Shown: positions 5,445 to 38,180 of the stretch, piece by piece
Layout of the letters: each line of letters begins with the position of its first letter
How positions within the stretch are numbered: the stretch's first letter is position 1
Source of the DNA: Auricularia sp. M13
Lineage: Eukaryota > Basidiomycota > Agaricomycetes > Auriculariales > Auriculariaceae
Direction: 5' to 3'
Assembly (NCBI GenBank): GCA_037042915.1
Contig: CM073199.1
Coordinates: 2,852,001-2,916,000, forward strand
DNA: 64,000 nucleotides
Made by a program: the position numbers and the translations under genes
The notes under the pieces: model-generated
What the model saw: only the letters and a program-made list of their open reading frames with translations
Database searches by the model: none
Told to the model about the DNA's origin: nothing

Positions 5445-5930
5445 GAGAACCTTACTCTCCCCCACGTTTCCAGGTGGAATTCCAGGTGGAGTGACCTCCA
5501 AATTAAGAAAATTTGACCTAACCTAAATTAACCTAACCTAACCCCTAACCCATCCCCACACTAACCTAACCTAACCGAACACTGATGCCTGTGTTATAAC
5601 TCAATCAGTCCGCATTCCACATGGAATTTGGGAAGAAAACGTTCCCCAACCTAACCTAACCTAACCTAACCTAACCTAACCTAACCTAACACCTAACCTA
5701 ACCCCTAACCTAACCTAACCTAACCTCGATGCGCATGCCATGGCACTATTTGTGTTTACTCCACGTGGAATAGGTGGAACTAGGTGGAATAAAGTGCCGG
5801 AATCTCCACGTGGAATTCCACCTATTCCACCTGAGAAACTTTTCATATTTAGATGTTACACTTCATTTTTGACAACTTTTATTTTTGAGGTGGAATTACA
5901 CGTGGAATAGTGGGGGACAGTCACTTACAG
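5445..5930. mobile_element. 486-bp hAT-like MITE inside integrase, 8-bp TSD
   Basis: The integrase frame breaks off after FLDKA and resumes after an identical octamer: GACAAAGC occurs at 5437-5444 and again at 5931-5938. Removing the insert plus one octamer rejoins the integrase frame exactly. The ends form an imperfect terminal inverted repeat sharing TCCCCCAC followed by spaced TTCCA and AATTCCA blocks. The interior has no ORF; it consists of CCTAA tandem repeats and short palindromic GTGGAATTCCAC-type motifs. The 8-bp TSD fits the hAT superfamily, but the outermost bases are diverged and no transposase is present, so the family is an inference. Confidence 0.8.
5514..5727. repeat. (CCTAA)n-rich simple repeat within the MITE
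   Basis: Runs of CCTAACCTAA, imperfect and broken by a short unique stretch at about 5570-5650. The complementary strand reads TTAGG, the arthropod-type telomere repeat, rather than TTAGGG usual in fungi. It lies in the interior of a transposable element, so it is not evidence of a telomere. Confidence 0.85.
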
Positions 5931-15600: not shown

Positions 15601-18600
15601 CACCACTCCAGTCTGCAGCGGAGACCCCAGACAATGTCTGGAATTGCTGTTGCTTTCTCGCACCATCGACGGCAGACGATCAGCCCAGCGAGCGTGGCCT
15701 GACCATGTCGCATTACAATGTCTTTTATCACGGTCAGGGATCATCCGAATTCACTAGACACCACTCCAGTCTGCAGCGGAGACCCCAGACAATGTCTGGA
15801 ATTGCTGCTGCTTTCTCGCAGCATCGACGGCAGACGATCTGCCTAGTGAGCGTGGCCTGACCGCTTAACATTACAATGTGCTTTCTCACCGTCCGGGGTC
15901 ATCTGAATTCACTAGACACCACTCCGGTCTGCTGCCGAGACCGCAGACAATGTCTGGAATTGCTGTTGCTTTCTCGCAGCATCGACGGCAGACGATCTGC
16001 CTAGCGAGCGTGGCCTGACCAGGTCGCATTACAATGTGTTTTCTCACCGTCAGGGAACATCTGAATTCACTAGACACCACTCCAGTCTGCAGCGGAGACC
16101 CCAGGCAATGTCTGGAATTGCTGCTGCTTTCTTGCACCATCGACGGCAGACGATCAGCCCAGCGAGCGTGGCCTGACCATGTCGCATTACAATGTGTTTT
16201 ATCACCGTCAGGGATCATCTGAATTCACTAGACACCACTCCAGTCTGCAGCGGAGACCCCAGGCAATGTCTGGAATTGCTGCTGCTTTCTTGCACCATCG
16301 ACGGCAGACGATCAGCCCAGCGAGCGTGGCCTGACCATGTCGCATTACAATGTGTTTTATCACGGTCAGGGATCATCTGAATTCACTAGACACCACTCCA
16401 GTCTGCTGCGGAGACCCCAGACAATGTCTGGAATTGCTGTTGCTTTCTCGCACCATCGACGGCAGACGATCAGCCCAGCGAGCGTGGCCTGACCATGTCG
16501 CATTACAATGTGTTTTATCACGGTCAGGGATCATCTGAATTCACTAGACACCACTCCAGTCTGCAGCGGAGACCCCAGACAATGTCTGGAATTGCTGCTG
16601 CTTTCTCGCAGCATCGACGGCAGACGATCTGCCTAGTGAGCGTGGCCTGACCACTTAACATTACAATGTGCTTTCTCACCGTCAGGGATCATCTGAATTC
16701 ACTAGACACCACTCCGGTCTGCTGCGGAGACCCCAGGCAATGTCTGGAATTGCTGATGCTTTCTCGCAGCATCGACGGCAGAAGATCTGCCTAGCGAGCG
16801 TGGCCTGACCAGGTCGCATTACAATGTGTTTTCTCACCGTCAGGGAACATCTGAATTCACTAGACACCACTCCAGTCTGCAGCGGAGACCCCAGGCAATG
16901 TCTGGAATTGCTGCTGCTTTCTTGCACCATCGACGGCAGACGATCAGCCCAGCGAGCGTGGCCTGACCATGTCGCATTACAATGTGTTTTATCACGGTCA
17001 GGGATCATCTGAATTCACTAGACACCACTCCAGTCTGCTGCGGAGACCCCAGGCAATGCCTAGAATTGCTGTTGCTTTCTCGCAGCATCGACTGCAGACG
17101 ATCTGCCTAGCGAGCGTGGCCTGACCTCTTAGCATTGCAATGTGTTTTCTCACCGTCCGGGGTCATCTGAATTCACTAGACACCACTCCGGTCTGCTGCC
17201 GAGACCGCAGACAATGTCTGGAATTGCTGTTGCTTTCTTGCACCATCGACGGCAGACGATCTGCCCAGCGAGCGTGGCCTGACCATGTCGCATTACAATG
17301 TGTTTTATCACCGTCAGGGAACATCTGAATTCACTAGACACCACTCCAGTCTGCAGCGGAGACCCCAGACAATGTCTGGAATTGCTGTTGCTTTCTCGCA
17401 GCATCGACGGCAGACGATCTGCCCAGTGAGCGTGGCCTGACCATGTCGCATTACAATGTGTTTTATCACCGTCAGGGGTCATCTGAATTCACTAGACACC
17501 ACTCCAGTCTGCTGCGGAGACCCCAGACAATGTCTGGAATTGCTGTTGCTTTCTCGCACCATCGACGGCAGACGATCTGCCTAGCGAGCGTGGCCTGACC
17601 ATGTCGCATTACAGTGTGTTTCCTCACTGTCAGGGGTCATCTGAATTCACTAGACACAACTCCAGTCTGCAGCGGAGACCCCAGGCAATGTCTGGAATTG
17701 CTGCTGCTTTCTCGCACCATCGACGGCAGACGATCTGCCTAGCGAGCGTGGCCTGACCATGTCGCATTACAATGTGTTTTATCACCGTCAGGGATCATCT
17801 GAATTCACTAGACACCACTCCAGTCTGCAGCGGAGACCCCAGACAATGTCTGGAATTGCTGTTGCTTTCTCGCAGCATCGACGGCAGACGATCTGCCCAG
17901 TGAGCGTGGCCTGACCATGTCGCATTACAGTGTGTTTCCTCACCGTCAGGGGTCATCTGAATTCACTAGACACCACTCCGGTCTGCTGCGGAGATCCCAG
18001 GCAATGTCTGGAATTGCTGCTGCTTTCTCGCAGCATCGACGGCAGACGATCTGCCTAGCGAGCGTGGCCTGACTGCTGTGCATTACAGTGTGTTTTCTCG
18101 CCGTCAGGGATCATCTGAATTCACTAGACACCACTCCAGTCTGCAGCGGAGGCCCCAGGCAATGTCTGGAATTGCTGTTGCTTTCTCGCACCATCGACGG
18201 CAGACGATCTGCCTCGCGAGCGTGGCCTGACCTCTTAGCATTGCAATGTGTTTTCTCACCGTCAGGGGTCATCTGAATTCACTAGACACCACTCCAGTCT
18301 GCTGCGGAGACCCCAGGCAATGTCTGGAATTGCTGATGCTTTCTCGCACCATCGATGGCAGACGATCTGCCTAGCGAGCGTGGCCTGACTGCTGTGCATT
18401 ACAGTGTGTTTTCTCGCCTTCAGGGGTCATCTGAATTCACTAGACACCACTCCAGTCTGCTGCGGAGACCCCAGGCAATGTCTGGAATTGCTGTTGCTTT
18501 CTCGCAGCATCGACGGCAGACGATCTGCCCAGCGAGCGTGGCCTGACCTCTTAGCATTACAGTGTGTTTCCTCACCGTCAGGGGTCATCCGAATTCACTA

Positions 18601-21600
18601 GACACCACTCCGGTCTGCTGCGGAGGCCCCAGGCAATGTCTGGAATTGCTGCTGCTTTCTCGCACCATCAAAGGCAGACGATCTGCCCAGCGAGCGTGGC
18701 CTGACCATGTCGCATTACAATGTGTTTTATCACCGTCAGGGGTCATCTGAATTCACTAGACACCACTCCGGTCTGCTGCGGAGGCCCCAGGCAATGTCTG
18801 GAATTGCTGCTGCTTTCTCGCACCATCGACGGCAGACGATCTGCCTAGCGAGCGTGGCCTGACCATGTCGCATTACAATGTGTTTTCTCACCGTCAGGGG
18901 TCATCTGAATTCACTAGACACCACTCCGGTCTGCTGCGGAGGCCCCAGGCAATGTCTGGAATTGCTGCTGCTTTCTCGCACCATCAAAGGCAGACGATCT
19001 GCCTAGCGAGCGTGGCCTGACTGCTGTGCATTACAGTGTGTTTTCTCGCCTTCAGGGATCATCTGAATTCACTAGACACAACTCCAGTCTGCTGCGGAGA
19101 CCGCAGATAATGTCTGGAATTGCTGCTGCTTTCTCGCACCATCAAAGGCAGACGATCTGCCCAGCCAGCGTGGCCTGACCATGTCGCATTACAGTGTGTT
19201 TCCTCACCGTCAGGGGTCATCTGAATTCACTAGACACCACTCCGGTCTGCTGCGGAGGCCCCAGGCAATGTCTGGAATTGCTGCTGCTTTCTCGCAGCAT
19301 CGATGGCAGACGATCTGCCTAGCGAGCGTGGCCTGACCTCTTAGCATTACAGTGTGTTTCCTCACCGTCAGGGGTCATCCGAATTCACTAGACACCACTC
19401 CGGTCTGCTGCGGAGGCCCCAGGCAATGTCTGGAATTGCTGCTGCTTTCTCGCAGCATCGACGGCAGACGATCTGCCTAGCGAGCGTGGCCTGACCTCTT
19501 AGCATTGCAATGTGTTTTCTCACCGTCAGGGAACATCTGAATTCACTAGACACCACTCCAGTCTGCAGCGGAGACCCCAGACAATGTCTGGAATTGCTGT
19601 TGCTTTCTCGCACCATCGACGGCAGACGATCTGCCTAGCGAGCGTGGCCTGACCATGTCGCATTACAATGTGTTTTCTCACCGTCAGGGATCATCTGAAT
19701 TCACTAGACACCACTCCGGTCTGCTGCGGAGGCCCCAGGCAATGTCTGGAATTGCTGCTGCTTTCTCGCACCATCGACGGCAGACGATCTGCCTAGCGAG
19801 CGTGGCCTGACCATGTCGCATTACAATGTGTTTTCTCACCGTCAGGGAACATCTGAATTCACTAGACACCACTCCAGTCTGCTGCGGAGACCCCAGGCAA
19901 TGTCTGGAATTGCTGCTGCTTTCTCGCAGCATCGACGGCAGACGATCTGCCTAGCGAGCGTGGCCTGACCTCTTAGCATTGCAATGTGTTTTCTCACCGT
20001 CAGGGAACATCTGAATTCACTAGACACCACTCCAGTCTGCTGCGGAGACCCCAGGCAATGTCTGGAATTGCTGATGCTTTCTCGCACCATCGATGGCAGA
20101 CGATCTGCCCAGCGAGCGTGGCCTGACCATGTCGCATTACAATGTGTTTTATCACCGTCAGGGGTCATCTGAATTCACTAGACACAACTCCAGTCTGCAG
20201 CGGAGACCCCAGACAATGTCTGGAATTGCTGTTGCTTTCTCGCACCATCGACGGCAGACGATCTGCCTAGCGAGCGTGGCCTGACCTCTTAGCATTGCAA
20301 TGTGTTTTCTCACCGTCAGGGGTCATCTGAATTCACTAGACACCACTCCGGTCTGCTGCGGAGGCCCCAGGCAATGTCTGGAATTGCTGCTGCTTTCTCG
20401 CACCATCGATGGCAGACGATCTGCCTAGCGAGCGTGGCCTGACCTCTTAGCATTACAGTGTGTTTCCTCACCGTCAGGGGTCATCCGAATTCACTAGACA
20501 CCACTCCGGTCTGCTGCGGAGGCCCCAGGCAATGTCTGGAATTGCTGCTGCTTTCTCGCAGCATCGACGGCAGACGATCTGCCTAGCGAGCGTGGCCTGA
20601 CCTCTTAGCATTGCAATGTGTTTTCTCACCGTCAGGGAACATCTGAATTCACTAGACACCACTCCAGTCTGCAGCGGAGACCCCAGACAATGTCTGGAAT
20701 TGCTGTTGCTTTCTCGCACCATCGACGGCAGACGATCTGCCTAGCGAGCGTGGCCTGACCATGTCGCATTACAATGTGTTTTCTCACCGTCAGGGATCAT
20801 CTGAATTCACTAGACACCACTCCGGTCTGCTGCGGAGGCCCCAGGCAATGTCTGGAATTGCTGCTGCTTTCTCGCAGCATCGACGGCAGACGATCTGCCT
20901 AGCGAGCGTGGCCTGACCTCTTAGCATTGCAATGTGTTTTCTCACCGTCAGGGAACATCTGAATTCACTAGACACCACTCCAGTCTGCTGCGGAGGCCCC
21001 AGGCAATGTCTGGAATTGCTGCTGCTTTCTCGCACCATCAAAGGCAGACGATCTGCCCAGCGAGCGTGGCCTGACCTCTTAGCATTACAGTGTGTTTCCT
21101 CACCGTCAGGGGTCATCCGAATTCACTAGACACCACTCCGGTCTGCTGCGGAGACCCCAGGCAATGTCTGGAATTGCTGATGCTTTCTCGCACCATCAAA
21201 GGCAGACGATCTGCCTAGCGAGCGTGGCCTGACCATGTCGCATTACAGTGTGTTTCCTCACCGTCAGGGGTCATCTGAATTCACTAGACACCACTCCGGT
21301 CTGCTGCGGAGACCCCAGGCAATGTCTGGAATTGCTGATGCTTTCTCGCACCATCGATGGCAGACGATCTGCCTAGCGAGCGTGGCCTGACCATGTCGCA
21401 TTACAATGTGTTTCCTCACCGTCAGGGGTCATCCGAATTCACTAGACACCACTCCGGTCTGCTGCGGAGACCCCAGACAATGTCTGGAGTTGCTGTTGCT
21501 TTCTCGCACCATCGACGGCAGACGATCTGCCTAGCGAGCGTGGCCTGACCATGTCGCATTACAGTGTGTTTCCTCACTGTCAGGGGTCATCTGAATTCAC

Positions 21601-24600
21601 TAGACACAACTCCAGTCTGCAGCGGAGACCCCAGACAATGTCTGGAATTGCTGTTGCTTTCTCGCACCATCGACGGCAGACGATCTGCCTAGCGAGCGTG
21701 GCCTGACCATGTCGCATTACAATGTGTTTTCTCACCGTCAGGGATCATCTGAATTCACTAGACACCACTCCAGTCTGCAGCGGAGACCCCAGACAATGTC
21801 TGGAATTGCTGTTGCTTTCTCGCACCATCGACGGCAGACGCTCTGCCTAGCGAGTGTGGCCTGACCTCTTAGCATTGCAATGTGTTTTCTCAGCGTCAGG
21901 GAACATCTGAATTCACTAGACACCACTCCAGTCTGCAGCGGAGACCCCAGGCAATGTCTGGAATTGCTGCTGCTTTCTCGCAGCATCGACGGCAGACGAT
22001 CTGCCTAGCGAGCGTGGCCTGACCATGTCGCATTACAATGTGTTTTCTCACCGTCAGGGATCATCTGAATTCACTAGACACCACTCCAGTCTGCAGCGGA
22101 GACCCCAGACAATGTCTGGAATTGCTGATGCTTTCTCGCACCATCGATGGCAGACGATCTGCCTAGCGAGCGTGGCCTGACCATGTCGCATTACAATGTG
22201 TTTTCTCACCGTCAGGGGTCATCTGAATTCACTAGACACCACTCCGGTCTGCTGCGGAGGCCCCAGGCAATGTCTGGAATTGCTGCTGCTTTCTCGCACC
22301 ATCAAAGGCAGACGATCTGCCTAGCGAGCGTGGCCTGACCATGTCGCATTACAATGTGTTTTCTCACCGTCAGGGATCATCTGAATTCACTAGACACCAC
22401 TCCAGTCTGCAGCGGAGACCCCAGACAATGTCTGGAATTGCTGTTGCTTTCTCGCAGCATCGACGGCAGACGATCTGCCCAGCGAGCGTGGCCTGACCTC
22501 TTAGCATTACAGTGTGTTTCCTCACCGTCAGGGGTCATCCGAATTCACTAGACACCACTCCGGTCTGCTGCGGAGACCCCAGGCAATGTCTGGAATTGCT
22601 GATGCTTTCTCGCACCATCGATGGCAGACGATCTGCCTAGCGAGCGTGGCCTGACCATGTCGCATTACAATGTGTTTTCTCACCGTCAGGGATCATCTGA
22701 ATTCACTAGACACCACTCCAGTCTGCTGCGGAGACCCCAGGCAATGTCTGGAATTGCTGCTGCTTTCTCGCACCATCAAAGGCAGACGATCTGCCTAGCG
22801 AGCGTGGCCTGACCATGTCGCATTACAGTGTGTTTCCTCACCGTCAGGGGTCATCTGAATTCACTAGACACCACTCCGGTCTGCTGCGGAGACCCCAGGC
22901 AATGTCTGGAATTGCTGATGCTTTCTCGCACCATCGATGGCAGACGATCTGCCTAGCGAGCGTGGCCTGACCATGTCGCATTACAATGTGTTTCCTCACC
23001 GTCAGGGGTCATCCGAATTCACTAGACACCACTCCGGTCTGCTGCGGAGACCCCAGACAATGTCTGGAGTTGCTGTTGCTTTCTCGCACCATCGACGGCA
23101 GACGATCTGCCTAGCGAGCGTGGCCTGACCATGTCGCATTACAATGTGTTTCCTCACTGTCAGGGGTCATCTGAATTCACTAGACACCACTCCGGTCTGC
23201 TGCGGAGGCCCCAGGCAATGTCTGGAATTGCTGATGCTTTCTCGCACCATCGATGGCAGACGATCTGCCTAGCGAGCGTGGCCTGACCATGTCGCATTAC
23301 AATGTGTTTTCTCACCGTCAGGGATCATCTGAATTCACTAGACACCACTCCAGTCTGCTGCGGAGACCCCAGGCAATGTCTGGAATTGCTGCTGCTTTCT
23401 CGCACCATCAAAGGCAGACGATCTGCCTAGCGAGCGTGGCCTGACCATGTCGCATTACAATGTGTTTTCTCACCGTCAGGGGTCATCTGAATTCACTAGA
23501 CACCACTCCGGTCTGCTGCGGAGGCCCCAGGCAATGTCTGGAATTGCTGCTGCTTTCTCGCACCATCAAAGGCAGACGATCTGCCTAGCGAGCGTGGCCT
23601 GACCATGTCGCATTACAATGTGTTTCCTCACCGTCAGGGGTCATCCGAATTCACTAGACACCACTCCAGTCTGCTGCGGAGACCCCAGGCAATGTCTGGA
23701 ATTGCTGTTGCTTTCTCGCACCATCAAAGGCAGACGATCTGCCTAGCGAGCGTGGCCTGACCTCTTAGCATTGCAATGTGTTTTCTCACCGTCAGGGATC
23801 ATCTGAATTCACTAGACACCACTCCAGTCTGCAGCGGAGACCCCAGACAATGTCTGGAATTGCTGATGCTTTCTCGCACCATCGATGGCAGACGATCTGC
23901 CTAGCGAGCGTGGCCTGACCATGTCGCATTACAATGTGTTTTCTCACCGTCAGGGGTCATCTGAATTCACTAGACACCACTCCGGTCTGCTGCGGAGGCC
24001 CCAGGCAATGTCTGGAATTGCTGCTGCTTTCTCGCACCATCAAAGGCAGACGATCTGCCTAGCGAGCGTGGCCTGACCATGTCGCATTACAATGTGTTTT
24101 CTCACCGTCAGGGATCATCTGAATTCACTAGACACTACTCCAGTCTGCAGCGGAGACCCCAGACAATGTCTGGAATTGCTGTTGCTTTCTCGCACCATCG
24201 ACGGCAGACGATCTGCCCAGCGAGCGTGGCCTGACCTCTTAGCATTACAGTGTGTTTCCTCACCGTCAGGGGTCATCCAAATTCACTAGACACCACTCCG
24301 GTCTGCTGCGGAGACCCCAGGCAATGTCTGGAATTGCTGATGCTTTCTCGCACCATCGATGGCAGACGATCTGCCTAGCGAGCGTGGCCTGACCATGTCG
24401 CATTACAATGTGTTTCCTCACCGTCAGGGGTCATCCGAATTCACTAGACACCACTCCGGTCTGCTGCGGAGACCCCAGACAATGTCTGGAATTGCTGTTG
24501 CTTTCTCGCACCATCGACGGCAGACGATCTGCCTAGCGAGCGTGGCCTGACCATGTCGCATTACAATGTGTTTTCTCACCGTCAGGGATCATCTGAATTC

Positions 24601-24948
24601 ACTAGACACCACTCCAGTCTGCAGCGGAGACCCCAGACAATGTCTGGAATTGCTGATGCTTTCTCGCACCATCGATGGCAGACGATCTGCCTAGCGAGCG
24701 TGGCCTGACCATGTCGCATTACAATGTGTTTCCTCACCGTCAGGGGTCATCCGAATTCACTAGACACCACTCCGGTCTGCTGCGGAGACCCCAGACAATG
24801 TCTGGAGTTGCTGTTGCTTTCTCGCACCATCAAAGGCAGACGATCTGCCTAGCGAGCGTGGCCTGACCATGTCGCATTACAATGTGTTTTCTCACCGTCA
24901 GGGATCATCTGAATTCACTAGACACCACTCCAGTCTGCAGCGGAGACC
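6670..24948. repeat. 158-bp satellite array, left block (about 116 copies)
   Basis: Head-to-tail units of 158 bp, each with one GAATTC site, continuing without other sequence from the 3' LTR to the giant palindrome. Each unit has three short dyads: CCAGACA-a-TGTCTGG, GGCAGA-cga-TCTGCC and GGTCT-n7-AGACC. Units fall into subfamilies, most easily told by the segment before GCATTAC/GCATTGC (ccatgtc, ccgctta, cctctta, ctgctgt, ccaggtc) and by CAGCGG versus TGCGGAG. Unit length is not a multiple of three, and the recurrent 62-residue (+) and 108-residue (-) ORFs are by-products of periodicity. No gene is seen inside. Confidence 0.97.
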
Positions 24949-27321
24949 CACCCCAGGCAATCTGTTTGTGACCCCTCGGGCCTCTAAGCGAGACCACTGA
25001 TGGCTGACCCAAGGGGTCACACCAAACAATGTCCCTTTGCACAGCCACCCCTCTCGGTCACCTCCAGCAGCACTGGCCAATGCATTACTGCGCTGAAAGC
25101 AATCTGGCGCATTCCCAGCGTGTTCAGATGGTCCACTGGTATTGCCCCATCACAAATAGCTTCTAGAATTTGTTCCCTAGGTGCCTCTGAGCATGCTGCA
25201 CACTGGCAGCTGCAGCAGCAAATGCAGCTGCAGCTGCAGTGATGCTCCTCGTCGTTCTGGTTGTGCGCAGCAGTCTAGAATGTAATTTAGCGATGTAATA
25301 CACTATTCCTTGCAGAGAGCGGCTGCCACATTGAGCTACACATGGAGTACATTGTTTTCACGGTCGCCGCGAAAATCAGCACAGCCACAGCGTCGCATCA
25401 CAGCCAGCAGCATTGAATGCAGCACAGCGGTAATGCGAGCAGCCTAGGGCACTAGTTGTGCATTAAGGAGGTCTACATGTGTTATCCCATTTCTATAGTG
25501 CAAGGAAAAGTGTCTACTGAGCTGTCCCTTACAGGCTGTTGGCTGTTGGTAGCAGCAGCAATGGCGCAGTAGCACCAGCAGCGGCAGAGGGTGTTCTGGT
25601 CGCGCACCATGTTGGAAAACACAATTCTCTATTGCTAGACACTATTCCACATCAGGGGGACATGCTATACTATGCACTATATCGACGGCATCAATTTCGC
25701 GGCGACCGCGAAATCTGCACAGCCACATCTCACGGTCACCGCCAGCAGCGGCAAGCACTGCGTTGCAGCACTGCAAATGGTCTGGCACACCTGTAGCAAG
25801 CTTAGGGTGTCTCCCGCCATGATACAAGCTCATCGCATTGTACATAACAGTGTTCTTAGCACTGATGGATAGGACTGCTCGCTGTCAACGGCAGCAGCAA
25901 CAGTGCAGCAGCACTGGCAAACCTCAAATGGTGTACTGATCGCGCGCTAGGCTCAGGAACACATCTTCTCATTGCTAGACAGTATCCCTTGCGATTCCAA
26001 AGTGCTGTGCTGTACTGTACGTCAATGATGTCGATTTCGCGGCCGCCGCGAAACCTGCACAGCCACAGGTTCGCGGTCACCGCCAGCAGCAGTGAGCACT
26101 ATGTAGCGGCACTGCAAGCGATCTGGCGCATTGGCAGCAGGCTTGGGGTGTCTTCTAGTATTGTAAAAACTCAAAAGCTAATAGAAAGCAGTGTTCTCAA
26201 CATTGCTAGACAGGCTGCTCACTGCCTGCAGCAGCGGCGAGGGTGCAGTGACAGCAGCAACGCTTGTTGTTGTTCTGACTGTGCAGTATGCCTTGGAATG
26301 CTATTCCGCACCGCCAGACACTGTTTTGAGCAAGGGAGAGTGTCCTGGGCGAGCTGAACACCAAGAGTGTCGATTTATCGGTCGCCGCGAATCCTGCACA
26401 GCCACATTCCCGCAGTTGCCTGCAGCAGCATGAACACCTTGTTGGAGCATCAGGAATGTTGCAGTGCATGGCCAGTAGGTTTGTACAGTCTAAAAAGGAC
26501 ATCCCCTGCGAAAGAATTGAGTTGAATGACCTTCTGGATGTCCCTGAGTGTGGTGCTCACTGTCTGCCAACAGTAGGACCACTTCCGGCAGCAGCGACGA
26601 GTGCAGACACTGCAAAAACACTCTATTGTAATCATCTGTGACCCTTGAAACCTTCCCCTGCACAAAGGGCTCCTAGGGCAAGTCCCTGAGCATGTTGCAG
26701 GCTCAAGGGCCAGTTTATCGGCCGCCGCGAGATTTTGCACAGCCACTGATATCCATCGATCAATCCGGACTTAAGGCCGCTTTTGCCCTAACCTAAGTGC
26801 ATTTTGGGCATGGGAATTTCGAGGAAATGAGACTGGCTTATGATTCATTACATTAGGACAGTCTCAATGGCGCAATTCCAGGTGCCTGGAGTGCCTGGAA
26901 GGTGTGCAGTGAGCCAAATATACCTCCAGAATGCGAGCATAATAGCACCTCAGTCTTGGCTCTAATCCATTGGGTGTGATAGTGAAAACCACTTGGTTTT
27001 ACGTCTAGATCATACTCCTAAAAGCCCTCACAAATGCATTCAGAACTGGGAGCTGGGTGCAAGTGCACATTTCCTGATGGGGCAAGCATTTGCACCCAGC
27101 TCTGTAGACATCTCCAATGCGCATGGGACTTTGGGATTACCTTCTCTGAGTATATCTAAGCATATTCCGTGCATGTGCCTGGTGGGATATAACAATGGAA
27201 GCGTCCCAGAAGCGAAGCAACTGGAGCTCAGGGTAGCATAAACTCCCATGAATTCCCCACTATCCCTCGCATTCCAGCTCGGAATTTCAATGCGGACTAT
27301 CTCAGGGGTACTCTATGCATG
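24949..27321 (+). repeat. left arm of giant palindrome
   Basis: Pairs base for base, apart from minor indels, with the right arm read in reverse. Contains degenerate subrepeats about 340 bp apart, marked by GCACAGCCAC at about 25039, 25379, 25717, 26057, 26395 and 26736. The outer two thirds are rich in GCAGCAGC runs; the inner ~600 bp (from about 26760) is AT-richer unique sequence. Confidence 0.9.
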
Positions 27322-27467
27322 ATTTCCAACAGTTTTCTGGTGGATTAAACTTGATTCCACCAAAAGATACATGTTCACTCATGTTTGCTGAATGTTCACT
27401 AAGATTGCATAGACAACCTACTTGACCTTCCAGTTCGGAGTTTTCCGGCGTGATTTTGACTGGTATA
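27322..27467. other. asymmetric centre (spacer) of the palindrome
   Basis: About 146 bp that are not inverted copies of each other lie between the inner arm ends (left ends in CTCTATGCATG, right begins with CATGCATAGAG). No ORF or known motif is seen. A non-palindromic loop argues that the structure is a real element rather than a template-switch artefact. Confidence 0.8.
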
Positions 27468-29838
27468 CATGCATAGAGTACCCCTGAGATAGTCCGCATT
27501 GAAATTCCGAGCTGGAATGCGAGGGATAGTGGGGAATTCATGGGAGTTTATGCTACCCTGAGCTCCAGTTGCTTCGCTTCTGGGACGCTTCCATTGTTAT
27601 ATCCCACCAGGCACATGCACGGAATATGCTTAGATATACTCAGAGAAGGTAATCCCAAAGTCCCATGCGCATTGGAGATGTCTACAGAGCTGGGTGCAAA
27701 TGCTTGCCCCATCAGGAAATGTGCACTTGCACCCAGCTCCCAGTTCTGAATGCATTTGTGAGGGCTTTTAGGAGTATGATCTAGACGTAAAACCAAGTGG
27801 TTTTCACTATCACACCCAATGGATTAGAGCCAAGACTGAGGTGCTATTATGCTCGCATTCTGGAGGTATATTTGGCTCACTGCACACCTTCCAGGCACTC
27901 CAGGCACCTGGAATTGCGCCATTGAGACTGTCCTAATGTAATGAATCATAAGCCAGTCTCATTTCCTCGAAATTCCCATGCCCAAAATGCACTTAGGTTA
28001 GGGCAAAAGCGGCCTTAAGTCCGGATTGATCGATGGATATCAGTGGCTGTGCAAAATCTCGCGGCGGCCGATAAACTGGCCCTTGAGCCTGCAACATGCT
28101 CAGGGACTTGCCCTAGGAGCCCTTTGTGCAGGGGAAGGTTTCAAGGGTCACAGATGATTACAATAGAGTGTTTTTGCAGTGTCTGCACTGTCGCTGCTGC
28201 CGGAAGTGGTCCTACTGTTGGCAGACAGTGAGCACCACACTCAGGGACATCCAGAAGGTCATTCAACTCAATTCTTTCGCAGGGGATGTCCTTTTTAGAC
28301 TGTACAAACCTACTGGCCATGCACTGCAACATTCCTGATGCTCCAACAAGGTGTTCATGCTGCTGCAGGCAACTGCGGGAATGTGGCTGTGCAGGATTCG
28401 CGGCGACCGATAAATCGACACTCTTGGTGTTCAGCTCGCCCAGGACACTCTCCCTTGCTCAAAACAGTGTCTGGCGGTGCGGAATAGCATTCCAAGGCAT
28501 ACTGCACAGTCAGAACAACAACAAGCGTTGCTGCTGTCACTGCACCCTCGCCGCTGCTGCAGGCAGTGAGCAGCCTGTCTAGCAATGTTGAGAACACTGC
28601 TTTCTATTAGCTTTTGAGTTTTTACAATACTAGAAGACACCCCAAGCCTGCTGCCAATGCGCCAGATCGCTTGCAGTGCCGCTACATAGTGCTCACTGCT
28701 GCTGGCGGTGACCGCGAACCTGTGGCTGTGCAGGTTTCGCGGCGGCCGCGAAATCGACATCATTGACGTACAGTACAGCACAGCACTTTGGAATCGCAAG
28801 GGATACTGTCTAGCAATGAGAAGATGTGTTCCTGAGCCTAGCGCGCGATCAGTACACCATTTGAGGTTTGCCAGTGCTGCTGCACTGTTGCTGCTGCCGT
28901 TGACAGCGAGCAGTCCTATCCATCAGTGCTAAGAACACTGTTATGTACAATGCGATGAGCTTGTATCATGGCGGAGACACCCTAAGCTTGCTACAGGTGT
29001 GCCAGACCATTTGCAGTGCTGCAACGCAGTGCTTGCCGCTGCTGGCGGTGACCGTGAGATGTGGCTGTGCAGATTTCGCGGTCGCCGCGAAATTGATGCC
29101 GTCGATATAGTGCATAGTATAGCATGTCCCCCTGATGTGGAATAGTGTCTAGCAATAGAGAATTGTGTTTTCCAACATGGTGCGCGACCAGAACACCCTC
29201 TGCCGCTGCTGGTGCTACTGCGCCATTGCTGCTGCTACCAACAGCCAACAGCCTGTAAGGGACAGCTCAGTAGACACTTTTCCTTGCACTATAGAAATGG
29301 GATAACACATGTAGACCTCCTTAATGCACAACTAGTGCCCTAGGCTGCTCGCATTACCGCTGTGCTGCATTCAATGCTGCTGGCTGTGATGCGACGCTGT
29401 GGCTGTGCTGATTTTCGCGGCGACCGCGAAAACAATGTACTCCATGTGTAGCTCAATGTGGCAGCCGCTCTCTGCAAGGAATAGTGTATTACATCGCTAA
29501 ATTACATTCTAGACTGCTGCGCGCAACCAGAACGACGCGAAGCATCGCTGCTGCTGCAGCTGCATTTGCTGCTGCAGCTGCCAGTAAGCAGCATGCTCAG
29601 AGGCACCCAGGGAACTGTTTCTAGAAGATATTTGTGATGGGGCAATACCAGTGGACCATCTGAACACGCTGGGAACACGCCAGATTGCTTTCAGTGCAGT
29701 AATGCATTGGCCAGTGCTGCTGGAGGTGACCGAGAGGGGTGGCTGTGCAAAGGGACATTGTTTGGTGTGACCCCTTGGGTCAGCCATCAGTGGTCTCGCT
29801 TAGAGGCCTGAGGGGTCACAAACAGATTGCCTGGGGTG
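27468..29838 (-). repeat. right arm of giant palindrome
   Basis: Inverted copy of the left arm, 2,371 bp against 2,373 bp. Ends in CAGATTGCCTGGGGTG directly before the second CGGAGACC. Carries the same subrepeats and hairpins in mirror order. Confidence 0.9.
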
Positions 29839-31833
29839 CGGAGACCCCAGACAATGTCTGGAATTGCTGATGCTTTCTCGCACCATCGATGGCAGACGAT
29901 CTGCCTAGCGAGCGTGGCCTGACCATGTCGCATTACAATGTGTTTCCTCACCGTCAGGGGTCATCCGAATTCACTAGACACCACTCCGGTCTGCTGCGGA
30001 GACCCCAGACAATGTCTGGAGTTGCTGTTGCTTTCTCGCACCATCGACGGCAGACGATCTGCCTAGCGAGCGTGGCCTGACCATGTCGCATTACAATGTG
30101 TTTCCTCACTGTCAGGGGTCATCTGAATTCACTAGACACAACTCCAGTCTGCAGCGGAGACCCCAGACAATGTCTGGAATTGCTGTTGCTTTCTCGCACC
30201 ATCGACGGCAGACGATCTGCCTAGCGAGCGTGGCCTGACCATGTCGCATTACAATGTGTTTCCTCACCGTCAGGGGTCATCCGAATTCACTAGACACCAC
30301 TCCAGTCTGCTGCGGAGACCCCAGGCAATGTCTGGAATTGCTGTTGCTTTCTCGCACCATCAAAGGCAGACGATCTGCCTAGCGAGCGTGGCCTGACCTC
30401 TTAGCATTGCAATGTGTTTTCTCACCGTCAGGGAACATCTGAATTCACTAGACACCACTCCAGTCTGCTGCGGAGACCCCAGGCAATGTCTGGAATTGCT
30501 GATGCTTTCTCGCACCATCGATGGCAGACGATCTGCCCAGCGAGCGTGGCCTGACCATGTCGCATTACAATGTGTTTTATCACCGTCAGGGGTCATCTGA
30601 ATTCACTAGACACCACTCCAGTCTGCTGCGGAGACCCCAGACAATGTCTGGAATTGCTGATGCTTTCTCGCACCATCGATGGCAGACGATCTGCCTAGCG
30701 AGCGTGGCCTGACCGCTTAGCATTACAATGTGTTTTCTCACCGTCAGGGGTCATCTGAATTCACTAGACACCACTCCGGTCTGCTGCGGAGGCCCCAGGC
30801 AATGTCTGGAATTGCTGCTGCTTTCTCGCACCATCAAAGGCAGACGATCTGCCCAGCGAGCGTGACCTGACCATGTCGCATTACAGTGTGTTTCCTCACT
30901 GTCAGGGGTCATCTGAATTCACTAGACACAACTCCAGTCTGCAGCGGAGACCCCAGACAATGTCTGGAATTGCTGCTGCTTTCTCGCAGCATCGACGGCA
31001 GACGATCTGCCTAGCGAGCGTGGCCTGACCATGTCGCATTACAATGTGTTTTCTCACCGTCAGGGATCATCTGAATTCACTAGACACCACTCCAGTCTGC
31101 AGCGGAGACCCCAGACAATGTCTGGAATTGCTGTTGCTTTCTCGCACCATCGACGGCAGACGATCTGCCTAGCGAGTGTGGCCTGACCTCTTAGCATTGC
31201 AATGTGTTTTCTCACCGTCAGGGAACATCTGAATTCACTAGACACCACTCCGGTCTGCTGCGGAGGCCCCAGGCAATGTCTGGAATTGCTGCTACTTTCT
31301 CGCACCATCAAAGGCAGACGATCTGCCCAGCGAGCGTGGCCTGACCATGTCGCATTACAGTGTGTTTCCTCACTGTCAGGGGTCATCTGAATTCACTAGA
31401 CACAACTCCAGTCTGCAGCGGAGGCCCCAGGCAATGTCTGGAATTGCTGATGCTTTCTCGCACCATCGATGGCAGACGATCTGCCTAGCGAGCGTGGCCT
31501 GACTGCTGTGCATTACAGTGTGTTTTCTCGCCTTCAGGGGTCATCTGAATTCACTAGACACCACTCCAGTCTGCTGCGGAGACCCCAGGCAATGTCTGGA
31601 ATTGCTGTTGCTTTCTCGCACCATCAAAGGCAGACGATCTGCCTAGCGAGCGTGGCCTGACCACTTAGCATTGCAATGTGTTTTCTCACCGTCAGGGGTC
31701 ATCCGAATTCACTAGACACAACTCCAGTCTGCAGCGGAGGCCCCAGGCAATGTCTGGAATTGCTGCTGCTTTCTCGCAGCATCGACGGCAGACGATCTGC
31801 CTAGCGAGCGTGGCCTGACCTCTTAGCATTGCA

Positions 31834-32654
31834 ATGTGTTTTCTCACCGTCAGGGAACATCTGAATTCACTAGACACCACTCCGGTCTGCTGCGGAGGCC
31901 CCAGGCAATGTCTGGAATTGCTGCTGCTTTCTCGCACCATCAAAGGCAGACGATCTGCCCAGCGAGCGTGGCCTGACCATGTCGCATTACAGTGTGTTTC
32001 CTCACTGTCAGGGGTCATCTGAATTCACTAGACACAACTCCAGTCTGCAGCGGAGGCCCCAGGCAATGTCTGGAATTGCTGCTGCTTTCTCGCAGCATCG
32101 ACGGCAGACGATCTGCCTAGCGAGCGTGGCCTGACCTCTTAGCATTGCAATGTGTTTTCTCACCGTCAGGGAACATCTGAATTCACTAGACACCACTCCA
32201 GTCTGCTGCGGAGACCCCAGGCAATGTCTGGAATTGCTGCTGCTTTCTCGCACCATCAAAGGCAGACGATCTGCCCAGCGAGCGTGGCCTGACCATGTCG
32301 CATTACAGTGTGTTTCCTCACTGTCAGGGGTCATCTGAATTCACTAGACACAACTCCAGTCTGCAGCGGAGGCCCCAGGCAATGTCTGGAATTGCTGCTG
32401 CTTTCTCGCAGCATCGACGGCAGACGATCTGCCTAGCGAGCGTGGCCTGACCTCTTAGCATTGCAATGTGTTTTCTCACCGTCAGGGAACATCTGAATTC
32501 ACTAGACACCACTCCGGTCTGCTGCGGAGGCCCCAGGCAATGTCTGGAATTGCTGCTGCTTTCTCGCACCATCAAAGGCAGACGATCTGCCCAGCGAGCG
32601 TGGCCTGACCATGTCGCATTACAATGTGTTTTATCACCGTCAGGGGTCATCTGA
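31834..32654. repeat. 316-bp dimeric higher-order repeat
   Basis: Two unit types alternate with a 316-bp period: one with CTCTTAGCATTGC and GGGAACATC, the next with ATGTCGCATTACAGTG and CACTGTCAGGGG. The first type recurs at 31834, 32150 and 32466. Confidence 0.75.
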
Positions 32655-34044
32655 ATTCACTAGACACCACTCCAGTCTGCTGCGGAGACCCCAGACAATG
32701 TCTGGAATTGCTGATGCTTTCTCGCACCATCGATGGCAGACGATCTGCCTAGCGAGCGTGGCCTGACCGCTTAGCATTACAATGTGTTTTCTCACCGTCA
32801 GGGGTCATCTGAATTCACTAGACACCACTCCGGTCTGCTGCGGAGGCCCCAGGCAATGTCTGGAATTGCTGCTGCTTTCTCGCACCATCAAAGGCAGACG
32901 ATCTGCCCAGCGAGCGTGACCTGACCATGTCGCATTACAGTGTGTTTCCTCACTGTCAGGGGTCATCTGAATTCACTAGACACAACTCCAGTCTGCAGCG
33001 GAGACCCCAGACAATGTCTGGAATTGCTGTTGCTTTCTCGCACCATCGACGGCAGACGATCTGCCTAGCGAGTGTGGCCTGACCTCTTAGCATTGCAATG
33101 TGTTTTCTCACCGTCAGGGAACATCTGAATTCACTAGACACCACTCCGGTCTGCTGCGGAGGCCCCAGGCAATGTCTGGAATTGCTGCTGCTTTCTCGCA
33201 CCATCAAAGGCAGACGATCTGCCCAGCGAGCGTGGCCTGACCATGTCGCATTACAGTGTGTTTCCTCACTGTCAGGGGTCATCTGAATTCACTAGACACA
33301 ACTCCAGTCTGCAGCGGAGGCCCCAGGCAATGTCTGGAATTGCTGCTGCTTTCTCGCAGCATCGACGGCAGACGATCTGCCTAGCGAGCGTGGCCTGACC
33401 TCTTAGCATTGCAATGTGTTTTCTCACCGTCAGGGAACATCTGAATTCACTAGACACCACTCCAGTCTGCTGCAGAGACCCCAGGCAATGTCTGGAATTG
33501 CTGATGCTTTTCGCACCATCGACGGCAGACGATCTGCCCAGCGAGCGTGGCCTGACCATGTCGCATTACAATGTGTTTTATCACCGTCAGGGGTCATCTG
33601 AATTCACTAGACACCACTCCAGTCTGCTGCGGAGACCCCAGACAATGTCTGGAATTGCTGATGCTTTCTCGCACCATCGATGGCAGACGATCTGCCTAGC
33701 GAGCGTGGCCTGACCGCTTAGCATTACAATGTGTTTTCTCACCGTCAGGGGTCATCTGAATTCACTAGACACCACTCCGGTCTGCTGCGGAGGCCCCAGG
33801 CAATGTCTGGAATTGCTGCTGCTTTCTCGCACCATCAAAGGCAGACGATCTGCCCAGCGAGCGTGGCCTGACCATGTCGCATTACAGTGTGTTTCCTCAC
33901 TGTCAGGGGTCATCTGAATTCACTAGACACAACTCCAGTCTGCAGCGGAGGCCCCAGGCAATGTCTGGAATTGCTGCTGCTTTCTCGCAGCATCGACGGC
34001 AGACGATCTGCCTAGCGAGCGTGGCCTGACCTCTTAGCATTGCA

Positions 34045-37000
34045 ATGTGTTTTCTCACCGTCAGGGAACATCTGAATTCACTAGACACCACTCCAGTCTG
34101 CTGCAGAGACCCCAGGCAATGTCTGGAATTGCTGATGCTTTCTCGCACCATCGACGGCAGACGATCTGCCCAGCGAGCGTGGCCTGACCATGTCGCATTA
34201 CAATGTGTTTTATCACCGTCAGGGGTCATCTGAATTCACTAGACACCACTCCAGTCTGCTGCGGAGACCCCAGACAATGTCTGGAATTGCTGATGCTTTC
34301 GCACCATCGATGGCAGACGATCTGCCTAGCGAGCGTGGCCTGACCGCTTAGCATTACAATGTGTTTTCTCACCGTCAGGGGTCATCTGAATTCACTAGAC
34401 ACCACTCCGGTCTGCTGCGGAGGCCCCAGGCAATGTCTGGAATTGCTGCTGCTTTCTCGCACCATCAAAGGCAGACGATCTGCCCAGCGAGCGTGACCTG
34501 ACCATGTCGCATTACAGTGTGTTTCCTCACTGTCAGGGGTCATCTGAATTCACTAGACACAACTCCAGTCTGCAGCGGAGACCCCAGACAATGTCTGGAA
34601 TTGCTGTTGCTTTCTCGCACCATCGACGGCAGACGATCTGCCTAGCGAGCGTGGCCTGACCATGTCGCATTACAATGTGTTTTCTCACCGTCAGGGATCA
34701 TCTGAATTCACTAGACACCACTCCAGTCTGCAGCGGAGACCCCAGACAATGTCTGGAATTGCTGTTGCTTTCTCGCACCATCGACGGCAGACGATCTGCC
34801 TAGCGAGTGTGGCCTGACCTCTTAGCATTGCAATGTGTTTTCTCACCGTCAGGGAACATCTGAATTCACTAGACACCACTCCAGTCTGCTGCAGAGACCC
34901 CAGGCAATGTCTGGAATTGCTGCTGCTTTCTCGCACCATCCAAGGCAGACGATCTGCCCAGCGAGCGTGGCCTGACCATGTCGCATTACAATGTGTTTTA
35001 TCACCGTCAGGGGTCATCTGAATTCACTAGACACCACTCCAGTCTGCTGCGGAGACCCCAGACAATGTCTGGAATTGCTGATGCTTTCTCGCACCATCGA
35101 TGGCAGACGATCTGCCTAGCGAGCGTGGCCTGACCGCTTAGCATTACAATGTGTTTTCTCACCGTCAGGGGTCATCTGAATTCACTAGACACCACTCCGG
35201 TCTGCTGCGGAGGCCCCAGGCAATGTCTGGAATTGCTGCTGCTTTCTCGCACCATCAAAGGCAGACGATCTGCCCAGCGAGCGTGACCTGACCATGTCGC
35301 ATTACAGTGTGTTTCCTCACTGTCAGGGGTCATCTGAATTCACTAGACACAACTCCAGTCTGCAGCGGAGACCCCAGACAATGTCTGGAATTACTGTTGC
35401 TTTCTCGCACCATCGACGGCAGACGATCTGCCTAGCGAGCGTGGCCTGACCATGTCGCATTACAATGTGTTTTCTCACCGTCAGGGATCATCTGAATTCA
35501 CTAGACACCACTCCAGTCTGCAGCGGAGACCCCAGACAATGTCTGGAATTGCTGTTGCTTTCTCGCACCATCGACGGCAGACGATCTGCCTAGCGAGCGT
35601 GGCCTGACCTCTTAGCATTGCAATGTGTTTTCTCACCGTCAGGGAACATCTGAATTCACTAGACACCACTCCAGTCTGCTGCAGAGACCCCAGGCAATGT
35701 CTGGAATTGCTGCTGCTTTCTCGCACCATCAAAGGCAGACGATCTGCCCAGCGAGCGTGGCCTGACCATGTCGCATTACAATGTGTTTTATCACCGTCAG
35801 GGGTCATCTGAATTCACTAGACACCACTCCAGTCTGCTGCGGAGACCCCAGACAATGTCTGGAATTGCTGATGCTTTCTCGCACCATCGATGGCAGACGA
35901 TCTGCCTAGCGAGCGTGGCCTGACCGCTTAGCATTACAATGTGTTTTCTCACCGTCAGGGGTCATCTGAATTCACTAGACACCACTCCGGTCTGCTGCGG
36001 AGGCCCCAGGCAATGTCTGGAATTGCTGCTGCTTTCTCGCACCATCAAAGGCAGACGATCTGCCCAGCGAGCGTGACCTGACCATGTCGCATTACAGTGT
36101 GTTTCCTCACTGTCAGGGGTCATCTGAATTCACTAGACACAACTCCAGTCTGCAGCGGAGACCCCAGACAATGTCTGGAATTGCTGTTGCTTTCTCGCAC
36201 CATCGACGGCAGACGATCTGCCTAGCGAGCGTGGCCTGACCATGTCGCATTACAATGTGTTTTCTCACCGTCAGGGATCATCTGAATTCACTAGACACCA
36301 CTCCAGTCTGCAGCGGAGACCCCAGACAATGTCTGGAATTGCTGTTGCTTTCTCGCACCATCGACGGCAGACGATCTGCCTAGCGAGTGTGGCCTGACCT
36401 CTTAGCATTGCAATGTGTTTTCTCACCGTCAGGGAACATCTGAATTCACTAGACACCACTCCAGTCTGCTGCAGAGACCCCAGGCAATGTCTGGAATTGC
36501 TGCTGCTTTCTCGCACCATCAAAGGCAGACGATCTGCCCAGCGAGCGTGGCCTGACCATGTCGCATTACAATGTGTTTTATCACCGTCAGGGGTCATCTG
36601 AATTCACTAGACACCACTCCAGTCTGCTGCGGAGACCCCAGACAATGTCTGGAATTGCTGATGCTTTCTCGCACCATCGATGGCAGACGATCTGCCTAGC
36701 GAGCGTGGCCTGACCGCTTAGCATTACAATGTGTTTTCTCACCGTCAGGGGTCATCTGAATTCACTAGACACCACTCCGGTCTGCTGCGGAGGCCCCAGG
36801 CAATGTCTGGAATTGCTGCTGCTTTCTCGCACCATCAAAGGCAGACGATCTGCCCAGCGAGCGTGACCTGACCATGTCGCATTACAGTGTGTTTCCTCAC
36901 TGTCAGGGGTCATCTGAATTCACTAGACACAACTCCAGTCTGCAGCGGAGACCCCAGACAATGTCTGGAATTACTGTTGCTTTCTCGCACCATCGACGGC

Positions 37001-38180
37001 AGACGATCTGCCTAGCGAGCGTGGCCTGACCATGTCGCATTACAATGTGTTTTCTCACCGTCAGGGATCATCTGAATTCACTAGACACCACTCCAGTCTG
37101 CAGCGGAGACCCCAGACAATGTCTGGAATTGCTGTTGCTTTCTCGCACCATCGACGGCAGACGATCTGCCTAGCGAGCGTGGCCTGACCTCTTAGCATTG
37201 CAATGTGTTTTCTCACCGTCAGGGAACATCTGAATTCACTAGACACCACTCCAGTCTGCTGCAGAGACCCCAGGCAATGTCTGGAATTGCTGCTGCTTTC
37301 TCGCACCATCAAAGGCAGACGATCTGCCCAGCGAGCGTGGCCTGACCATGTCGCATTACAATGTGTTTTATCACCGTCAGGGGTCATCTGAATTCACTAG
37401 ACACCACTCCAGTCTGCTGCGGAGACCCCAGACAATGTCTGGAATTGCTGATGCTTTCTCGCACCATCGATGGCAGACGATCTGCCTAGCGAGCGTGGCC
37501 TGACCGCTTAGCATTACAATGTGTTTTCTCACCGTCAGGGGTCATCTGAATTCACTAGACACCACTCCGGTCTGCTGCGGAGGCCCCAGGCAATGTCTGG
37601 AATTGCTGCTGCTTTCTCGCACCATCAAAGGCAGACGATCTGCCCAGCGAGCGTGACCTGACCATGTCGCATTACAGTGTGTTTCCTCACTGTCAGGGGT
37701 CATCTGAATTCACTAGACACCACTCCGGTCTGCTGCGGAGGCCCCAGGCAATGTCTGGAATTGCTGCTGCTTTCTCGCACCATCAAAGGCAGACGATCTG
37801 CCCAGCGAGCGTGGCCTGACCATGTCGCATTACAGTGTGTTTCCTCACTGTCAGGGGTCATCTGAATTCACTAGACACAACTCCAGTCTGCAGCGGTGGC
37901 CCCAGGCAATGTCTGGAATTGCTGCTGCTTTCTCGCAGCATCGACGGCAGACGATCTGCCTAGCGAGCGTGGCCTGACCTCTTAGCATTGCAATGTGTTT
38001 TCTCACCGTCAGGGAACATCTGAATTCACTAGACACCACTCCAGTCTGCTGCAGAGACCCCAGGCAATGTCTGGAATTGCTGATGCTTTCTCGCACCATC
38101 GACGGCAGACGATCTGCCCAGCGAGCGTGGCCTGACCATGTCGCATTACAATGTGTTTTATCACCGTCAGGGGTCATCTG
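34045..38180. repeat. 790-bp higher-order repeat (5 x 158 bp)
   Basis: The same ordered set of five unit variants recurs every 790 bp. A marker unit carrying TGCAGAGACC plus GGGAACATC recurs at about 34045, 34833, 35623, 36413, 37203 and 37993 (the first step is 788 because of a 2-bp deletion). Full pentamers from about 34833 to 37990 are nearly identical, and the flanking ones are partly rearranged. This indicates recent local amplification of a five-unit block. Confidence 0.88.

What the first reader, a model, noticed from the sequence alone, without database searches (positions are those of the whole stretch)
24949..29838. Giant 4.9-kb palindromic foldback element inserted in a satellite
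Arms of about 2.37 kb are inverted copies around a 146-bp asymmetric centre, and the whole is flanked by the 8-bp duplication CGGAGACC that occurs once in the uninterrupted satellite unit. That is the signature of a transposed unit, yet no transposase is present. Foldback elements are known mainly from animals and plants; a basidiomycete one with kilobase arms and an 8-bp TSD may be undescribed. The arms differ by scattered changes, so it has existed for some time.
Basis: partly seen in the sequence, partly recalled or inferred. Interest (0 to 1): 0.82.

Follow-up and report, generated by a model that had tools for sequence, protein, structure and literature searches.

The report
KDZ-linked palindromic foldback transposon, fungus
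A 4.9-kb piece of fungal DNA that reads almost the same forwards and backwards is a gene-less jumping element, which appears to be moved by large KDZ-type transposons in the same genome and whose two halves seem to be copied over each other.

Summary
The palindrome is real: arms of 2,373 and 2,371 bp (99.2% identical) around a 146-bp asymmetric centre, with a perfect 8-bp duplication CGGAGACC in a satellite. The same palindrome lies at two other loci with different 8-bp duplications (one interrupted by nested insertions), and a diverged subfamily has two more copies.

The same ends (about 68 bp, CACCYYAGGC...) bound four 9-17 kb elements with KDZ (Kyakuja-Dileera-Zisupton) transposase domains, three of which have 8-bp duplications. 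KDZ elements and foldbacks also share subterminal arrays of CGGYCRCC, a candidate transposase-binding site.

I read it as a non-autonomous foldback moved in trans by KDZ transposase. Arm identity is patchy: this copy differs by substitutions only in its outer 412 bp, while the C1 copy is identical in its outer 827 bp and about 10% different inside. C8 and C1 share left-arm alleles that C7 lacks. This fits one ancestral palindrome that moved whole, followed by arm-to-arm conversion.

Foldbacks are known. Nine searches of the held library showed no KDZ-linked one. New variant of a known kind.

The parts
24941..24948 (.). left target-site duplication CGGAGACC
24949..27321 (+). left arm, 2,373 bp
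24949..25026 (+). left terminal repeat shared with KDZ-coding elements (CACCCCAGGCAATCTGTTT...; 77-87% over 78-87 bp)
25038..26483 (+). diverged tandem units, period about 340 bp (60-64% identical in the self-matches), a further weak unit to about 26746; CGGYCRCC sites recur in them, and TGCACAGCCAC at five places of the arm
25055..26726 (+). eight CGGYCRCC-type sites (either orientation; starting 25055, 25361, 25701, 25733, 26040, 26074, 26379, 26719), candidate transposase-binding sites
26680..27321 (+). inner non-coding arm region, also found (about 76%) at C10 and C2 and, in part, (about 60-66%) in the 3.5/12.4-kb subfamily
27322..27467 (.). 146-bp asymmetric centre, shared with the C8 and C1 copies
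27468..29838 (-). right arm, 2,371 bp, inverted copy
28063..29732 (-). eight CGGYCRCC-type sites, mirror of the left arm
29761..29838 (-). right terminal repeat
29839..29846 (.). right target-site duplication CGGAGACC
6670..44008 (.). 158-bp satellite array that is the insertion target (the range includes the insert)

Best explanation
The palindrome is a non-autonomous foldback transposon. KDZ transposase made by large elements elsewhere in the genome recognises its ~68-bp ends (and probably the CGGYCRCC arrays inside the arms), cuts it out whole and inserts it with an 8-bp target duplication. Its arms are modular: a KDZ-type terminus, then about 340-bp subterminal units in tandem, then an inner non-coding region, mirrored around a small unique centre. 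After insertion the arms are homogenised in patches by arm-to-arm gene conversion (or another hairpin-templated repair), which keeps the palindrome near-perfect. Shown: the shared ends, the TSDs, the motif arrays, KDZ domains within the same ends, one palindrome with one centre at three loci, and patchy arm identity. Inferred: that KDZ transposase binds and moves it, that the patches are due to conversion, and its biochemical route.
For: Ends: a search of the window's own genome for CACCYYAGGCRATCWRTTT gave 33 sites with up to 2 mismatches (3 for the reversed control). Of the 21 exact ones, 18 form 9 inverted pairs, and 8 of these 9 pairs have perfect 8-bp TSDs, all of different sequence. Partner: 4 of the 9 pairs enclose KDZ domain matches over the Pfam cut-off (C2 17.1 kb, C1 16.2 kb twice, C5 9.1 kb). 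The C2 element also has a CxC1 domain over the cut-off beside KDZ. The two 16.2-kb copies are 99.83% identical with different TSDs, which suggests recent movement. Binding-site signature: CGGYCRCC occurs 16 times in the palindrome (0.3 expected from dinucleotide shuffles) and 31, 39 and 28 times in three KDZ elements (4.2, 3.7, 3.3 expected), against 2 and 7 in two stretches of the window (2.5, 4.3 expected). One form of it, CGGCCGCC, is the commonest 8-mer in KDZ subterminal sequence counted alone, three elements, first 130 bp left out. Its first copy starts 105-107 bp from the left end in all 8 elements of this end type that one search listed, and at the mirror position at the right end. Whole-unit movement and conversion: the palindromes at C7, C8 and C1 share the centre but have different TSDs, and arm differences are blocky.
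Against: No transposition or binding was observed. Homology between the palindrome and the four KDZ-coding elements is confined to the first 78-87 bp, the motif and one weak 90-bp match in C5. L025 extends it to 330 bp at 87% beside a KDZ fragment, but that is a lone end. Two of 10 paired elements examined lack a TSD (C5, C10). The C10 relative shares only the first bases of the end, then has other terminal repeats, and no CGGYCRCC site. The motif was picked from the arms after looking. Between-copy differences are also uneven along the arm, though less than within-copy ones. The arm patterns could in part be polishing artefacts, since no reads were available.
Confidence: 0.92

Rival explanations
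1. A Mutator-type (or hAT-type) foldback, as most described foldbacks are held to be Mutator relatives.
For: 8-bp TSDs are usual for hAT (passage), and Tetris, placed in Mutator, has 8-10 bp TSDs.
Against: All four elements with the same ends in which a transposase was recognised carry KDZ. No hAT or Mutator domain turned up in 30 of the 77 frames of 150 aa or more listed for L009-L012 and L018 (frames; scans). The genome was not searched for those families.
Confidence: 0.03
2. An assembly or library artefact (chimeric hairpin reads).
For: Near-perfect kilobase palindromes are a common form of artefact (general knowledge).
Against: Three loci with different TSDs, 3.7-9.8% apart in the arm pairs computed, share one centre, and the flanks restore the satellite exactly.
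Confidence: 0.01
3. Arms are alike because each palindrome was made anew by inverted duplication, not because of conversion.
For: C7 arms are 99.2% identical, closer to each other than to those of C8.
Against: The copies share one centre, and C8R and C1a share 14 alleles at arm positions 994-1159 in the same (left) position, so a two-armed ancestor seems to predate them. C1 has no arm difference in its outer 827 bp and about 10% inside. Exchange between the C8 and C1 copies could also explain the shared alleles.
Confidence: 0.08
4. The palindrome serves as a hairpin-RNA trigger that silences KDZ elements (as Mu killer does in maize, recalled). This could hold together with the best explanation.
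For: A read-through transcript would fold into a duplex of about 2.37 kb, and the arms include the KDZ terminus.
Against: No transcript or small-RNA data; only 78-87 bp is shared with the KDZ-coding elements.
Confidence: 0.1

Closest known systems
KDZ transposons (Kyakuja-Dileera-Zisupton; Cryptococcus KDZ1-3, PMC12810828, passages; PMC12730594, abstract, passages and one section)
   Same: Terminal inverted repeats and 8-bp TSDs (KDZ1; Zisupton); KDZ transposase with CxC1, as in the C2 partner element
   Different: The palindrome has no recognised gene. Described KDZ1-3 are about 9-11 kb with TIRs of 139-241 bp, not 2.37-kb arms; KDZ2 and KDZ3 insertions gave 4-8 bp TSDs. TET-bearing Kyakuja have 7-bp TSDs and no TIRs.
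Galileo foldback (Drosophila, P superfamily; PMC3573991, abstract and passages)
   Same: Long TIRs with internal tandem repeats proposed to hold secondary transposase sites; two-TIR copies without transposase; chimeric copies without matching TSDs
   Different: P superfamily, 7-bp target sequences; TIR lengths quoted in the passages seen reach about 1.26 kb.
Tetris foldback (Drosophila virilis; PMC4079207, abstract and one section)
   Same: Non-autonomous foldback, three structurally complete copies, TIRs with ~220-bp tandem repeats, a link to satellite DNA
   Different: Placed in Mutator from TSD size and earlier suggestions; its transposase was not found, whereas here a candidate helper is found. 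Its own repeats feed a satellite; here the element sits inside one.

Membership tests
Foldback element (structural class) | long inverted arms making up most of the element, little or no coding capacity | tested here: met
   arms 4,744 of 4,890 bp; longest frame 163 aa; 10 of 25 frames scanned, no Pfam match over cut-off
Foldback element (structural class) | internal tandem repeats in the arms | tested here: met
   self-matches at an offset of 340 bp and multiples, 60-64% identity
Foldback element (structural class) | transposed as a unit with TSD | tested here: met
   3 loci of this palindrome, 3 different 8-bp TSDs
KDZ superfamily, non-autonomous member | ends shared with elements that encode KDZ transposase | tested here: met
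   4 of 9 end pairs enclose KDZ matches over cut-off
KDZ superfamily, non-autonomous member | 8-bp TSD | tested here: met
   8 of 9 exact end pairs
KDZ superfamily, non-autonomous member | mobilised in trans by KDZ transposase | not testable with these tools
   needs an excision assay
KDZ superfamily, non-autonomous member | sub-lineage (Kyakuja, Dileera or Zisupton) | not tested
   no reference transposases at hand; TIRs and 8-bp TSDs do not fit the TIR-less, 7-bp TET-bearing Kyakuja
Mutator (MULE) foldback | MULE transposase within the same ends | tested here: inconclusive
   none in 30 of 77 frames of the KDZ-element loci; the genome was not searched for MULE

The most novel reading that the evidence does not exclude
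KDZ foldbacks are self-correcting gene-less transposons: arm-to-arm copying through a cruciform or hairpin keeps kilobase arms, with their arrays of transposase sites, near-identical. They may act both as high-affinity sponges for KDZ transposase and as hairpin-RNA sources that silence it.
Probability: 0.15. Interest if true: 0.75.

Novelty: new variant of a known kind. Interest (0 to 1): 0.52.

Why it matters
Foldback elements can be orphans whose transposase is guessed from TSD size, as with Tetris. Here three copies of one palindrome, a second subfamily and a likely helper with a near-identical pair sit in one assembled genome. If right, it places foldbacks in the KDZ superfamily and gives a fungal system in which palindrome maintenance by arm conversion can be measured. 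It also suggests a recognition motif (CGGYCRCC) for KDZ transposase that can be tested.

Tried and rejected
Chimeric assembly: rejected on three loci with different TSDs. Coding function of the inner region: mismatches between C7 and C10 fall evenly over the three phases (51, 51 and 48, of 216 each) and all six frames have stops in both, so rejected. Known RNA family: no match over gathering score in the window. TET/JBP inside the partner elements: 19 matches listed in the genome, none within the nine end pairs. Subtelomeric ends CACCTCAGGCATTCTATTT: the three copies fetched, of four, have the same 10-bp flank, so they look like duplications and not separate insertions. Satellite derived from the element's end: the satellite consensus and the end share a 12-mer (0 of 400 shuffles), but the wider local alignment is not significant (23 of 400), so left open. 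L025: a lone end near a KDZ fragment, no second end found in 27 kb; lone ends at C11 and C7:2323425 likewise. Species: not identified; 16 Peroxidase_ext matches and 149 listed KDZ matches suggest an agaricomycete (inference). Literature: nine searches, some listings cut (for example 30 of 65 papers, 15 of 26). I opened six papers: abstract and/or passages or one section each (PMC12730594, PMC12810828, PMC3573991, PMC4079207, PMC12477816, PMC8290104). Most subscription papers are not held. Bohne et al. 2012 (Zisupton) and Iyer et al. 2014 (KDZ) were seen only as citations, and the supplementary figure on KDZ/Plavaka TIR motifs mentioned in PMC8290104 was not seen.

Faults of my own found on checking: the left end of C10 was set one base late; one search shows the true flanks, which also do not match. 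One search scored 3 of 8 candidates and did not list the window's own satellite array, so it does not show where else the satellite lies. In one search the expected counts come from single-base shuffles; one search repeats most of them with dinucleotide shuffles.

Full report
Observation. The inverted repeat is there as described: arms 24949-27321 and 27468-29838, 99.2% identical over 2,373 columns, centre 27322-27467, duplication CGGAGACC on both sides. The flanks joined give a 40-mer found exactly 45 times in the window, so the insertion broke an ordinary satellite unit. The 17 substitutions between the arms all lie between positions 30 and 412; the rest of the arms differ by two 1-bp indels.

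Copies. The left arm was searched against the window's own genome (52.1 Mb, 14 contigs; window = C7:2852001-2916000). It found a second complete palindrome of 4,891 bp at C8:3319494-3324384 (95.6% to C7 through the centre) and a third at C1:2153068-2163881, 10.8 kb long because other sequence is nested in it. Their duplications are ACCTCGGC and TTCGCCGG. A diverged subfamily has a 3.5-kb copy (C1:4403684-4407182, GTTTTACA) and a 12.4-kb copy with further sequence inside (C1:5110449-5122819, AGCTACAG); the aligned blocks of the two are 87-98% identical. In the 3.5-kb copy the outer arms are 97-99% identical, but its centre of about 0.9 kb is only partly palindromic. The inner arm region is also kept, at about 76%, in an element at C10:2008157-2010988 that has different terminal repeats after the first bases and no TSD, and in a broken relic at C2:1912-1914 kb.

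Partner. The end pattern CACCYYAGGCRATCWRTTT has 33 matches with up to two mismatches in the genome, and the reversed control has 3. Of the 21 exact matches, 18 form nine inverted pairs and three stand alone. Eight of the nine pairs have perfect 8-bp TSDs, all different; the C5 pair has none. Four pairs enclose matches to the KDZ transposase model PF18758 over its cut-off: C2:5047463-5064563, C1:2664111-2680306, C1:2693247-2709449 and C5:3016988-3026079. None of the other five pairs encloses any of the 149 matches listed (150 of 163 candidates scored). The C2 element also has CxC1, a cysteine cluster associated with KDZ transposases. The C1:2693247 element shows Ulp1-protease and cyclin-like domains as well, and the C5 element has Gypsy-type integrase domains, read as a nested retroelement (inference). 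The two C1 elements lie in opposite orientation about 13 kb apart, are 99.83% identical over 16.2 kb and have different TSDs, which suggests recent movement.

Shared anatomy. The first ~68 bp align across foldbacks and KDZ elements. The motif CGGYCRCC, noticed in the arms, is enriched in the four foldback copies counted (C7, C8 and the 3.5- and 12.4-kb copies: 16, 15, 17 and 17 sites against 0.3, 0.3, 0.3 and 3.0 expected) and in three KDZ elements, where it lies mostly within 3.1 kb of the ends (24 of 31, 27 of 39 and 25 of 28 sites in C2, C1a and C5). Two stretches of the window show 2 and 7 sites against 2.5 and 4.3 expected. The motif was chosen from the arms, so I also counted 8-mers in KDZ subterminal DNA alone: CGGCCGCC came first (40, against 4 in the interiors), and CGGTCGCC was in the top 15 (26 against 12); several other top words overlap it in sequence or are simply GC-rich. 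The C10 relative has none. The near-identical second C1 element was left out of the count (39 sites), and the 10.8-kb C1 palindrome was not counted.

Homogenisation. Orienting the copies by their shared centre makes C7L, C8R and C1a positional counterparts. Differences between the two arms of a copy come in blocks: C7 has 16 of 18 in the first 400 columns; C8 has 23 of 76 in 1001-1200 and none in 201-600 or 1201-1600; C1 has none in 1-800 and 7-13% in each 200-column window from 1001 to 2200. None of 20,000 random placements was as uneven for any of the three. The five between-copy comparisons tested are also uneven, but less so (p from 0.00015 to 0.043). Fifteen sites carry an allele found only in C8R and C1a, 14 of them in 994-1159; both are left-position arms, while C7L has the other allele. 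Against this, four sites pair C8R with C1b and one pairs C8L with C1a (25 commonest site classes printed, gapped columns left out). The simplest account is that the ancestral palindrome already had slightly different arms, moved as a whole, and C7 later had its left arm overwritten by its right. Exchange between the C8 and C1 copies is not excluded. The route (cruciform, hairpin or gap repair) is inference.

Known kinds. [quoted passage not shown] Cryptococcus KDZ1-3 are 9-11 kb with 139-241 bp TIRs; KDZ1 gives 8-bp TSDs, KDZ2 and KDZ3 4-8 bp (passages). Nine searches of the held library showed no KDZ-linked foldback in their listings; the library lacks most subscription papers and some listings were cut, so this is weak evidence of novelty.

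Verdict. A known kind of thing (a foldback) in what appears to be an undescribed superfamily setting, with a likely helper identified and a trace of arm conversion. The mobilisation step itself is inferred.

Noticed in passing
6670-44008: The 158-bp satellite also matches elsewhere on contig C7 (34 places listed, near 2.50-2.52 and 2.79 Mb). That search scored 3 of 8 candidates and did not even list the window's own array, so other sites are not excluded.
   Followed up: partly
24946-24948 and the satellite units: The satellite consensus shares the 12-mer ACCCCAGGCAAT with the KDZ/foldback end, overlapping the end of the target duplication (0 of 400 shuffles reach 12; wider alignment 23 of 400). 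The unit right after the insert has one mismatch. Target resemblance, common origin or chance.
   Followed up: partly
L021/L022 (C1 copy of the palindrome): Two identical copies of an 865-bp element that is itself a palindrome (380-bp arms, TA flanks, ends CAGTGACGGAAAAAA) are nested there; looks like a Tc1/mariner-type MITE (recalled).
   Followed up: no
24970-25018: The terminal repeat holds a small inverted repeat (GACCCCT...AGGGGTC). It is kept, with changes that extend the pairing, in the C5 KDZ end, but not in the C2 and C1 KDZ ends.
   Followed up: no
G000:C8:3325614-3326021: A TET/JBP dioxygenase match lies about 1.2 kb from the C8 palindrome.
   Followed up: no
L012: The 16.2-kb KDZ element shows cyclin-like and Ulp1-protease domains.
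   Followed up: no
5516-5726: Short ACCTA/AACCT tandem repeats about 1 kb before the satellite array.
   Followed up: no
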